A stretch of 33,701 nt of DNA from a virus: IMG/VR virus record IMGVR_UViG_3300049215_000024, positions 1 to 33,701 of that record, one strand, 5' to 3'. The translations under genes and the position numbers were made by a program. The notes below the pieces were generated by a model. It saw nothing but the letters and a program-made list of their open reading frames with translations, was not told where the DNA came from and ran no database searches. Positions 619-33,701 of this stretch are shown piece after piece (position 1 is the stretch's first letter; each line of letters starts with the position of its first letter).

Positions 619-869
619 AGCAGTCCTCCTGTCAGGCCGCCCAGGATTTTCCCGATGCCGCCGAGCACCCCACCGGATCCACCGCCGCCGCCGCCGCCGA
701 CACCGAACGGCGAGCCCGAGTCGGTGTTGCACAGGCCGGGGTTGGCGCGCGCGAAGACCGGGTCTTTGCACTGGTCGGGGATGGGGGTGGCGCGGGCGTC
801 GCAGGGGATGGTGAGCGCCAGGACGACGACGGCGACCATGATCGCAGCCCTACGCGGTAGGCGCGCCAT
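615..869 (-). CDS. Small secreted glycine-rich protein
   Basis: An 84-residue protein. The N-terminus has a classic signal peptide: basic start MARLPRR, hydrophobic core AAIMVAVVVLALTI and a likely cleavage site near CDARA-TP. The mature part has two Cys (DQCKDP and GLCNTD) likely to form a disulfide, then a run of glycines encoded by a CCG/CGG microsatellite and a GG-repeat tail. The ATG at 869 was chosen because upstream sequence in frame reads as a shadow of the preceding gene. It overlaps that gene by 20 bases. Secreted proteins of this sort are found near lysis genes of mycobacteriophages, but the function is unknown. Confidence 0.65.
   Translation of the reverse strand: MARLPRRAAIMVAVVVLALTIPCDARATPIPDQCKDPVFARANPGLCNTDSGSPFGVGGGGGGGSGGVLGGIGKILGGLTGGLL
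682..699. repeat. (CCG)6 microsatellite in glycine run
   Basis: Six perfect CCG units lie inside the secreted protein gene and encode part of its Gly run on the minus strand. Slippage here would change glycine number without breaking the frame. Confidence 0.8.
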
Positions 870-1269
870 CACCGTAATGGCGTCGGGGACGGGGACTGAG
901 CGTGGGTGGCGGGCTGATGTCTGAGCCGAGCTCGCGCAGCTCGCGGTAGGCTTCACGGTCCCACGGGACGTGGCCTTCGATGTACTCCCACAATTCGTCG
1001 ATGTCGGAGATCGCGTCGAGCCACTGCGCGCGCCCGCGAGCGACCTGCACTTCCAGGGCGGCGATCTCTTTGTGCAGCCCGGCTACGCGTTTGTCGTCGG
1101 CGGCGACGCGTTCCCGGTTGCGGGCGGCGTCCTTATCGGACTGTTCGCGGCGTAGTTTGTCGAGGGTTTCTTTGTCGAGTTGCATCCTGCCGCGGGATGT
1201 CACGATCGCCACGAGCGCGCACGCCGCGGAGAGAACGGCGGCGCATACCAGGATGACCTGTGCGATCAC
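850..1269 (-). CDS. Membrane-anchored coiled-coil protein, possible spanin-like lysis accessory
   Basis: A 139-residue protein starting with GTG at 1269 in a GTGA overlap with the previous gene. Residues about 2-24 are a hydrophobic anchor (MIAQVILVCAAVLSAACALV), followed by a long charged heptad-like helix (about 30-85, rich in D, K, R, E, L) and a proline-rich tail. An N-terminal anchor plus periplasmic coiled coil is the architecture of Rz-type i-spanins and of similar accessory lysis proteins in actinophages. The family cannot be confirmed by eye. It sits downstream of holins and lysins, which fits the lysis role. Confidence 0.65.
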   Translation of the reverse strand: MIAQVILVCAAVLSAACALVAIVTSRGRMQLDKETLDKLRREQSDKDAARNRERVAADDKRVAGLHKEIAALEVQVARGRAQWLDAISDIDELWEYIEGHVPWDREAYRELRELGSDISPPPTLSPRPRRHYGDGAPTA

Positions 1270-31623: not shown

Positions 31624-31856
31624 GATTCGCTCACCGTCATCTCCCAACCGTTGGCATGTGTGGTCACTTCGACAGTCACAGGTGTGCCAGTCATCGCGGC
31701 CTTGAGGACCAGGCGCATGATCGTTTCCATCCACACGGCTGGCTTGGCGTTCGGCGCGAGCTGCTGAGTGATCAGTTGCGGCGGCTCACTTGTCCATTCG
31801 CCGGTGTCATCGTCCATCGCGATCTGGCCGTCGATGGTGACGGTGACATGGGCCAT
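31620..31856 (-). CDS. Small protein, unknown function
   Basis: A 78-residue protein beginning MAHVTVTIDGQIAMDDDTGE, with ATG at 31856 sharing its A with the upstream TGA (TGATG). A beta-type N-terminus, a helix (AKPAVWMETIMRLVLKAAMT) and a final strand (VEVTTHANGWEMTVSES). I do not recognise a family. Tight couplings on both sides place it in the same transcription unit as the HNH gene. Confidence 0.65.
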   Translation of the reverse strand: MAHVTVTIDGQIAMDDDTGEWTSEPPQLITQQLAPNAKPAVWMETIMRLVLKAAMTGTPVTVEVTTHANGWEMTVSES

Positions 31857-32296
31857 CAGCGGTGCAGCTCGTCGATGCGCTTGGCCAGTAGGTCGCAGTC
31901 CACTGGCGCTTTGAGCCTGCTCGTCGGAATGCTCATCAGTACATCGCCGCGGTGCTGACATGTCACATCGACTGTTGGCGCTGCTGGGTTGATCTCAGCC
32001 GGCGCGGCGACTGCAGCACGCAACTGTGCGAGTTCGGTGCGGTCGATCAGTTCCAGGCCCGCGTCGTTCTCGAGCAAGTGGACTATGGCTTCGGCGATGA
32101 TCAGCGGTGCGTCGTTGGCGGGCAATCCAGCTTCGGCCGCGAAGTGTTTGGCCATCTCGGGTGGAATGCCTGCGCTGGACAGTCCTGGTAGTGGGATGAC
32201 TTTGGGTGGCTGTTTGTTGCCGTCGCCTGGGTGTACGAGCCCTTTGGGTAGGCGTTGGGCGATGAGTGTGACGGCGCGGGTTTTAGGTGTGGGCAT
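31856..32296 (-). CDS. Conserved-type hypothetical protein, right-arm end
   Basis: A 146-residue protein. ATG at 32296 (MPTPKTRAVTLIAQRLPKG) is preferred over the in-frame TTG at 32308. It has a Pro-rich segment (KVIPLPGLSSAGIPPEMAK), a helix (APLIIAEAIVHLLENDAG), and two Cys (DVTCQHRGD and APVDCDLLAKRIDEL). No Shine-Dalgarno is visible. Divergent from the lipoprotein gene with 30 bases between the starts. Function unknown. Confidence 0.65.
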   Translation of the reverse strand: MPTPKTRAVTLIAQRLPKGLVHPGDGNKQPPKVIPLPGLSSAGIPPEMAKHFAAEAGLPANDAPLIIAEAIVHLLENDAGLELIDRTELAQLRAAVAAPAEINPAAPTVDVTCQHRGDVLMSIPTSRLKAPVDCDLLAKRIDELHR

Positions 32297-32312
32297 TGGG
32301 GTGGCCAATCGG

Positions 32313-32318
32313 TATGCT
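32313..32318 (+). promoter_or_regulatory. -10 element for leaderless lipoprotein transcript
   Basis: TATGCT at 32313-32318 fits the actinobacterial TANNNT -10 consensus. Initiation 7-9 bases downstream would fall at or next to the GTG start at 32327, giving a leaderless mRNA, a common arrangement in mycobacteria. No good -35 is visible and no Shine-Dalgarno precedes the GTG, in line with a leaderless start. Confidence 0.5.
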
Positions 32319-32326
32319 GGCTGGTT

Positions 32327-32659
32327 GTGCTGAAGTGTTTGGCCGTGTTGGCGGCGGTTGTTGCGACGGTCTGCGCCTGCTCACAGTCGACGGTGCCTGC
32401 CGTGTTGGATAAGGACGGCACTTTCTATCGGTTGAACGCCGCGACGTTTGAGACTGGCGGTTCAGCGCGTGGAAATGGGTCGCCGTGTAGCTGGGAGCGG
32501 TTGTCGTCGGATTGGGACCGCAATCCCAGCATTGATGACACATATCGGGCGTTTCTTGCGCGGGGTGATGTGGCATCGGGTCAGGTGAGCCGGGTGAGCG
32601 TTGATGATGGGCAGTATTTCGTCAGTTGGGGCTGTCTGCCGTGGCGGCATGTCGACTGA
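32327..32659 (+). CDS. Predicted lipoprotein on opposite strand, candidate lysogenic moron
   Basis: A 110-residue protein from GTG 32327. VLKCLAVLAAVVATVCAC is a lipoprotein-type signal with a probable lipidated Cys18 (VCAC; the -2 residue is unusual). The mature part has a short linker, GTFYRLNAATFETGG, then CSWERL (Cys54) and YFVSWGCLPW (Cys103), likely one disulfide, in a pattern seen in small actinobacterial lipoproteins (GTY... CxWxRL ... F.S.GCxxW). It is the only plus-strand gene in the right 33 kb and its 3' end overlaps the minus-strand 52-residue gene by 38 bases. Such isolated genes often alter the lysogen surface, for example by excluding other phages. Confidence 0.75.
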   Translation: MLKCLAVLAAVVATVCACSQSTVPAVLDKDGTFYRLNAATFETGGSARGNGSPCSWERLSSDWDRNPSIDDTYRAFLARGDVASGQVSRVSVDDGQYFVSWGCLPWRHVD

Positions 32660-32780
32660 CGTGGGCCGCTCTCGGATACCGGTCGAGTAGCAGGTCTAGG
32701 CGCCGCCATTGTGTGAGTTGTGTGCGGGCTGCGGTGATGTCTTCTCTGAGGTTCCGCAGTGCGCGGGGTTCGTCGGCCAT
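32622..32780 (-). CDS. Small charged helical protein, unknown function
   Basis: A 52-residue protein (MADEPRALRNLREDITAART ... WRRLDLLLDRYP). ATG at 32780 is preceded by GAGG seven bases upstream, which rules out the longer upstream frame. Mostly an amphipathic helix with basic and acidic residues. Its 3' end overlaps the convergent lipoprotein gene. No family recognised. Confidence 0.65.
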   Translation of the reverse strand: MADEPRALRNLREDITAARTQLTQWRRLDLLLDRYPRAAHVSRHAATADSPN

Positions 32781-32883: not shown

Positions 32884-33701
32884 TCATTCCCAGATGTGGG
32901 GTGTGTCGACGCGCCGGTCGCTCGTGGCAGCCCGCAACCGACGCACATCCGGCCAAAGGTAGAGCGGCACGTCTTCGTTGGTGTGCCGGTTGATGACGTG
33001 ACGCCCATCGGGCCGCAGGTAGCCGCGCGGTTTGAGCTTGGCCGGTTCACCATTCTCGCCGGGTTGGCGCCAGTGCCGCAGCGTGCGCTCAGGAATGCGG
33101 TACTCCTCGGGCTGGATGCGGTTGGCTTTGAGCACCTGGTCCCAGGTGAGTTTCTTGCGCTCGAGGTCGTTCATCATCAGCAGCTGCAGCCGGTCGGGGT
33201 TGTGCACCTGTCGGCAGCGTGGGCAGAACACCTCGGCGGCGTCTTGGCGGCAGCGCAGCTCGAATCCGCAGGCTGAGCGGCGGTCTTCGTTCCAGGTGGG
33301 GCAGCGGCCGAGCCAGCGCATGGGCACGGGCCGGTTGACGATGCGGCCGATGTCGCCGTCGCGGCGGGCGTCGCCGACGAAGCCGCGGATCTCGGTGAGG
33401 GTGTGGCCGGCATCTTCTCCGCCCGCGATGACGTCTACGTGCTCGCTGAGCCATCGGGCTAGCCGCTTACACGCGACAAGCGGCGTTTGGCCGCCCTGGG
33501 CCACGCTGGCGGGCAATTCGACGCCTCTGGACTCGCACAGGTCGCGCACGATGGTGGTGAGCGCGTTGTGCACCTTGTCGAGCATGTTGACCGCGCGGGC
33601 GTTGACGCGTCCGGCCGCGAGGAACGCGTTGCGCAGTTTGGTCTGGGTCGCGGCGGGCTGGTATTCGCGGCAGGCGCAGTAGGTGTCGGGTCCGCGTTCT
33701 T
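32884..33701 (-). CDS. Zinc-binding and HTH-type DNA-binding protein, partial (5' end outside window)
   Basis: Open to the right edge, so at least 271 residues with no start seen. The visible N-terminus has a CxC (YCAC). After a helical middle come a zinc ribbon (GRCPTW ... RSACGFELRC ... EVFCPRCRQVH) and a C-terminal segment LTWDQVLKANRIQPEEYRIPERTLRHW, which looks like a helix-turn-helix choosing an operator, followed by a basic tail. Similar zinc-ribbon/HTH proteins occur in the right arms of mycobacteriophages and are presumed DNA-binding regulators; the exact family is not certain. Confidence 0.72.
   Translation of the reverse strand, partial: ERGPDTYCACREYQPAATQTKLRNAFLAAGRVNARAVNMLDKVHNALTTIVRDLCESRGVELPASVAQGGQTPLVACKRLARWLSEHVDVIAGGEDAGHTLTEIRGFVGDARRDGDIGRIVNRPVPMRWLGRCPTWNEDRRSACGFELRCRQDAAEVFCPRCRQVHNPDRLQLLMMNDLERKKLTWDQVLKANRIQPEEYRIPERTLRHWRQPGENGEPAKLKPRGYLRPDGRHVINRHTNEDVPLYLWPDVRRLRAATSDRRVDTPHIWE

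What the first reader, a model, noticed from the sequence alone, without database searches (positions are those of the whole stretch)
32313..32659. Isolated plus-strand lipoprotein gene with a leaderless-type promoter
Seen: a single gene opposite to 33 kb of minus-strand genes, with a lipoprotein signal, two Cys likely to form a disulfide, no ribosome site, and TATGCT positioned so transcription would begin at its GTG. Known: such morons in other phages are expressed in lysogens and can alter the host surface. Inferred: surface-exposed lipoprotein that protects the lysogen or changes host physiology.
Basis: partly seen in the sequence, partly recalled or inferred. Interest (0 to 1): 0.62.

Follow-up and report, generated by a model that had tools for sequence, protein, structure and literature searches.

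The report
Phage lipoprotein resembling an exclusion protein
A small gene on the opposite strand of a mycobacterial phage encodes a probable lipid-anchored surface protein related to Charlie gp32, a protein known to stop a competing phage from infecting the cell, so it probably protects a bacterium that carries this phage.

Summary
The gene is real and at the stated place: GTG 32327 to stop 32659, + strand, 110 codons, with a lipoprotein signal, a C54/C103 pair, no Shine-Dalgarno site and TATGCT 8 nt before the GTG. Every other identified gene lies on the minus strand. The protein is a distant but secure homologue of gp32 of cluster N mycobacteriophage Charlie, a published heterotypic exclusion protein that probably blocks DNA injection. 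Closer relatives (44-45% identity) occur in Mycobacterium genomes; one follows the integrase of a prophage. Charlie gp32 passes the cut-off of a mycobacterial domain, NCBIfam Rv1352/Rv1906c; the window protein alone scores below it but groups with Charlie gp32 and relatives. The promoter geometry (TANNNT, 8 nt, start codon) recurs in Charlie only at the repressor, gp33 and gp32 (3 of 67 genes), and in the window only at this gene. In related phages and prophages no opposite-strand gene is annotated at this spot, which suggests a moron. Best reading: a lysogeny-expressed, leaderless, lipid-anchored superinfection-exclusion protein. Homology is shown; expression, lipidation and exclusion are inferred. 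The record holds no identified integrase or repressor, so temperate lifestyle is not shown. New member of a known kind.

The parts
32310..32318 (+). Mycobacterial -10 element, CGG + TATGCT (CGN-TANNNT), 8 nt before the GTG
   Evidence: Sequence; same geometry at repressor, gp33 and gp32 of Charlie and at no other of 38 start sites tested in the window; motif as mapped in M. tuberculosis (PMC3898074)
32327..32659 (+). Coding sequence of the 110-aa Charlie gp32-like lipoprotein, GTG start, probably leaderless
   Evidence: homology; no Shine-Dalgarno signal
32327..32380 (+). Signal peptide and lipobox VCA-C, C18 codon at 32378-32380
   Evidence: Matches the PROSITE lipobox pattern; all six distinct phage-subfamily proteins match it, 4 of 33 other relatives do
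32405..32653 (+). Extracytoplasmic domain of Rv1352/Rv1906c type, with C54 (32486-32488) and C103 (32633-32635)
   Evidence: Alignment of five relatives; NF053833 hit for Charlie gp32 (39.6 bits) and below cut-off for the window protein (19.8 against 25)
31856..32308 (-). Divergent neighbour, phrog_1186, unknown function, upstream of HNH and terminase genes; start probably ATG 32296 or TTG 32308
   Evidence: ORF
32622..32780 (-). Small convergent ORF (52 aa from an internal ATG), overlapping the 3' end of the lipoprotein gene by 38 bp
   Evidence: Sequence and ORF list only; no family match for the longer ORF
32884..33699 (-). Early helix-turn-helix type gene, phrog_908, cut by the right end of the record
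   Evidence: relatives annotated as helix-turn-helix DNA-binding proteins

Best explanation
A moron inserted on the opposite strand between the early helix-turn-helix gene and the packaging genes. It is transcribed on its own from a -10 element that puts the mRNA 5' end at or within about 2 nt of the GTG (leaderless), so it can be on in the prophage state while the minus-strand lytic genes are off. The product is exported, lipidated on C18 and held on the outer face of the cytoplasmic membrane. Its disulfide-stabilised domain, of the same type as Charlie gp32, interferes with an early step of infection by some other phages, most likely DNA entry. Shown here: gene, homology, lipobox motif, promoter geometry, absence of an annotated counterpart in related phages. 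Inferred: transcription in lysogens, lipidation, disulfide, exclusion.
For: Homology to Charlie gp32, which is expressed from the prophage, defends against Che9c and likely prevents DNA injection (PMC9262239; PMC13355554). Lipobox, the C54/C103 pair and the C-x-W and C-x-PW motifs are conserved in the phage subfamily. Close relative beside the integrase of the UC10 prophage, another beside the integrase of M. abscessus prophiGD03-1. Leaderless promoter geometry shared only with Charlie's repressor, gp33 and gp32 and with the lysogeny-cassette genes of Panchino and MichelleMyBell. No opposite-strand gene annotated at this place in related phages.
Against: Only 28% identity to Charlie gp32, and exclusion specificity is narrow (one known target), so function may differ. 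Location differs: packaging end, not next to an integrase. No integrase or repressor identified in the record. No -35, no terminator. Charlie gp32 is described as a membrane protein, not as a lipoprotein. UC10, G329 and prophiGD03-1 homologues lack the promoter geometry.
Confidence: 0.6

Rival explanations
1. A lysogenic-conversion lipoprotein that alters cell-envelope physiology, as a phage-borne copy of a mycobacterial Rv1352/Rv1906c-type protein, with no role in exclusion.
For: The phage subfamily is related to the NF053833 domain, found in 59 of 60 Mycobacterium genomes sampled.
Against: The one characterised member of the phage branch, Charlie gp32, is an exclusion protein, and the window protein groups with that branch.
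Confidence: 0.2
2. A protein used in the lytic cycle, for example to keep further phages out of an infected cell or to mark the envelope late in infection, not in lysogeny.
For: The record shows no integrase or repressor; the gene lies by the packaging genes rather than in a lysogeny cassette.
Against: It is on the strand opposite to the lytic genes with its own promoter element; in Charlie the same geometry marks only lysogeny-cassette genes.
Confidence: 0.12
3. A decaying remnant of an exclusion gene without present function.
For: Weak codon bias (-0.05 bits per codon against a model trained on this phage) and lower GC, 60.4% against 63.3%.
Against: Open frame with lipobox, both domain cysteines and the invariant domain residues intact; a well-placed promoter element.
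Confidence: 0.05
4. Longer protein starting at TTG 32255 (134 aa), with a cytoplasmic N-terminal extension and a transmembrane anchor, translated from a leadered mRNA.
For: The frame is open to 32255 and relatives UC10 and G329 have N-terminal extensions; modest Shine-Dalgarno score of -6.4.
Against: The extension overlaps the start of the divergent gene and does not align with the N-terminus of relatives; residues after C18 are polar, unlike a transmembrane anchor.
Confidence: 0.1

Closest known systems
Charlie gp32 (cluster N mycobacteriophage heterotypic exclusion protein; phrog_17706)
   Same: Homologous over the whole protein (28% identity, E=5e-11 pairwise); Cys at a lipobox position, C-x-W and C-x-PW motifs, promoter geometry
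   Different: Window protein has a shorter N-terminus and a polar stretch after the Cys (more lipoprotein-like), a 7-residue insertion after the first C-x-W motif, and lies by the packaging genes, not by the integrase
Homologue in the UC10 Mycobacterium prophage (L090:9783-10277)
   Same: 45% identity in the domain; in a prophage that may carry a distant relative of the window terminase (same contig)
   Different: Has a gp33-like N-terminal extension, a Shine-Dalgarno site instead of the leaderless geometry, and follows an integrase
Rv1352/Rv1906c domain proteins of mycobacteria (NCBIfam NF053833)
   Same: Same domain pattern, with the paired cysteines and final tryptophan
   Different: Window protein scores below the curated cut-off (19.8 against 25 bits); most others have an ordinary signal peptide and no lipobox
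Ltp of Streptococcus thermophilus phage TP-J34
   Same: Works-like comparison only: prophage-expressed lipoprotein outside the membrane that prevents DNA injection (PMC3952083)
   Different: No sequence relation indicated by any search here; Ltp has a serine-rich spacer and a repeat domain and lies in the lysogeny module

Membership tests
Charlie gp32-like exclusion proteins (phrog_17706) | Sequence homology over the domain | tested here: met
   phrog_17706 E=7.5e-7; BLASTP E=5e-11; profile without the window protein scores 60 bits
Charlie gp32-like exclusion proteins (phrog_17706) | Membrane anchoring | tested here: inconclusive
   Lipobox motif present; anchoring itself not measured
Charlie gp32-like exclusion proteins (phrog_17706) | Expression from the prophage | not testable with these tools
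   Promoter geometry matches Charlie's lysogeny genes, no RNA data
Charlie gp32-like exclusion proteins (phrog_17706) | Defence against a superinfecting phage with loss of plaques and lysogeny | not testable with these tools
   Known for Charlie gp32 only (PMC9262239)
Charlie gp32-like exclusion proteins (phrog_17706) | Gene in the variable region next to the integrase | tested here: not met
   Gene lies between a helix-turn-helix gene and the packaging genes. This is a feature of the cluster N genomes, not of the protein family
Rv1352/Rv1906c domain (NF053833) | Score over the curated cut-off of 25 bits | tested here: not met
   19.8 bits, E=7e-4; relatives Charlie gp32 and UC10 pass with 39.6 and 43.9 bits, so distant kinship is likely but membership is not claimed
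Bacterial lipoproteins | Signal peptide with lipobox Cys | tested here: met
   PROSITE-type pattern met at C18; Cys at position -2 is unusual; lipidation itself not tested
Leaderless mycobacterial transcripts | TANNNT centred 7-12 bp before an ATG or GTG that is the 5' end; no Shine-Dalgarno site | tested here: inconclusive
   Motif, distance (11.5 bp) and absence of Shine-Dalgarno met; start site not mapped
Ltp-type superinfection exclusion lipoproteins | Sequence homology to Ltp | not tested
   No direct comparison was made; family searches of the window protein returned no Ltp family

The most novel reading that the evidence does not exclude
Mycobacterial phages have taken up a mycobacterial secreted-protein domain (Rv1352/Rv1906c type), anchored it by a lipid or a transmembrane segment, put it under lysogenic promoters and use it as a decoy: the host protein is itself touched by phage tails during DNA entry, and the phage copy blocks that step.
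Probability: 0.15. Interest if true: 0.65.

Novelty: new member of a known kind. Interest (0 to 1): 0.42.

Why it matters
It extends a single-phage exclusion protein (Charlie gp32) to a wider phage and prophage family, with a more distant member in an M. abscessus prophage, and links it to a widespread mycobacterial domain, which gives a testable idea of what the protein mimics. Prophage exclusion genes also bear on which phages can infect clinical mycobacteria. The promoter geometry offers a simple sequence test for genes expressed in lysogens.

Tried and rejected
Scans of viral contigs for relatives of the protein found only cluster N phages; neighbour-gene scans found none. PADLOC: no match. 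Pfam PAS_4 (19.6 bits, below its cut-off of 23.1) rejected as chance. PDB profile search: nothing credible. A sigma-70 -35/-10 pair and an intrinsic terminator for the gene were sought and not found. The primary paper on Charlie gp32 (Dedrick et al. 2017) is not held, so reviews were used. The upstream TTG start at 32255 was considered: it would add 24 residues, with a modest Shine-Dalgarno score (-6.4); less likely but not excluded.

Full report
Observation. The gene described is present at the stated coordinates: GTG 32327, stop ending 32659, 110 codons on the + strand. The start has TATGCT at 32313-32318, preceded by CGG and followed by 8 nt before the GTG. The 20 nt upstream pair with the 16S rRNA tail no better than random sequence (-4.6 kcal/mol against a median of -4.5), while TerL, portal and LysA reach -9.9 to -13.2. 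The signal peptide ends in VCA-C and matches the PROSITE lipobox pattern. Identified genes elsewhere in the record are on the minus strand: packaging, portal and protease at the right, holin and two endolysin-family genes at the left; the middle was judged by ORF length.

Record. The window is the whole of a virus record of 33,701 bases. It runs from lysis genes to packaging and one early helix-turn-helix type gene, which is cut by the right end. No integrase or repressor was identified. DNA relatives of the portal and protease region are M. abscessus prophages and Gordonia and Mycobacterium phages.

Homology. tblastn of the protein finds only cluster N mycobacteriophages (best E=2e-3); PHROGs assigns phrog_17706, a membrane-protein moron family, at E=7.5e-7. 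The pairwise comparison with Charlie gp32 gives 28% identity, E=5e-11. In a sample of 396 Mycobacterium genomes the closest relatives are 45%, 44% and 37% identical (G009 = uncultured Mycobacterium UC10, G329, G194). A profile of Charlie gp32 and these three, built without the window protein, scores it at 60 bits. C54, C103 and the tryptophans of the C-x-W and C-x-PW motifs are invariant in the five-sequence alignment.

Domain. Charlie gp32 (39.6 bits) and the UC10 protein (43.9 bits) pass the cut-off of NCBIfam NF053833, Rv1352/Rv1906c domain; the window protein scores 19.8, below 25. The domain is found in 59 of 60 Mycobacterium genomes sampled. In a domain tree the window protein falls with UC10 and G329 (support 0.78), then with Charlie, Aggie and G194 (0.82), then prophiGD03-1 (0.94); the domain is short and these supports are moderate. 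All six distinct phage-subfamily proteins match a lipobox pattern, against 4 of 33 other relatives; the more distant prophiGD03-1 protein has a transmembrane segment without the Cys (sequence). G329 and G194 are counted in this subfamily by sequence; their genes were not shown to lie in prophages.

Published function. Charlie gp32 is expressed from the prophage, defends M. smegmatis against Che9c, impairs lysogeny as well as plaques and likely prevents DNA injection; Che9c is the only known target (PMC9262239; also PMC13355554).

Context. In Charlie, gp32 follows integrase and gp33. In the UC10 prophage the homologue follows a tyrosine recombinase of integrase type, with tail and lysis genes beyond; the same contig carries a relative of the window terminase. 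The UC10 protein joins a Charlie gp33-like N-terminus to a gp32-like domain. In M. abscessus prophiGD03-1 a related gene lies next to the integrase. In the window the gene instead lies between the helix-turn-helix gene and the packaging genes. In the relatives examined, no opposite-strand gene is annotated at that spot, consistent with insertion as a moron; these are not close relatives, so the insertion site itself could not be compared.

Promoter. TANNNT centred 7-12 bp before the start site, often preceded by SRN or CGN, is the mapped M. tuberculosis promoter motif, and GTG is about as frequent as a start of leaderless genes as of others there (PMC3898074). Among 67 Charlie genes only the repressor, gp33 and gp32 have TANNNT at leaderless distance, each with exactly 8 nt to the start codon; 0.2 are expected by chance. 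Panchino and MichelleMyBell show the same for repressor, gp33-type gene and membrane protein only, among the genes checked, though these phages are close relatives and not independent; Xeno has it at its gp33- and gp32-type genes and at a RelE-like toxin, not at its repressor. In the window the lipoprotein gene alone shows it (0 of 38 other start sites). G194 has TACCCT with 7 nt; UC10, G329 and prophiGD03-1 gp2 do not have it.

Mechanism and limits. The most likely working is a lipid-anchored extracytoplasmic protein, made in lysogens from a leaderless mRNA, that interferes with DNA entry of some other phages. Homology, motif and geometry are shown. Expression, lipidation, disulfide, exclusion and the temperate nature of this phage are inferred. 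It may work like Ltp of TP-J34 (PMC3952083), but no relation to Ltp was found. The finding is a new member of a known kind.

Noticed in passing
L090:9783-10277 (UC10 prophage) against L004:3423-4153 (Charlie gp33-gp32): The UC10 protein matches both Charlie gp33 (N-terminal WYPDP-type segment) and gp32 (domain), as if the two adjacent genes were fused; the gp33-type N-terminus recurs next to the integrase in many cluster N phages.
   Followed up: partly
L003:3911-4255 (Aggie gp32; Silvy has the same hit): Aggie gp32 is the Charlie protein with a 7-residue in-frame deletion that removes the first Cys of the proposed disulfide, a natural variant for testing whether exclusion needs it.
   Followed up: no
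L099 (Charlie), L100 (MichelleMyBell), L098 (Panchino): TANNNT with 7-8 nt to the start codon marks the repressor, the gp33-type gene and the membrane protein of the lysogeny cassette and none of the lytic genes tested; a possible general signature of leaderless lysogenic expression.
   Followed up: partly
window 850-1269, minus strand: A second moron-class membrane protein (phrog_9090, E=2.5e-7) downstream of the lysis genes.
   Followed up: no
window 32884-33699, minus strand: The phrog_908 helix-turn-helix type gene is cut by the end of the record; in related phages early genes lie beyond it, so the record probably lacks the early and lysogeny region.
   Followed up: no
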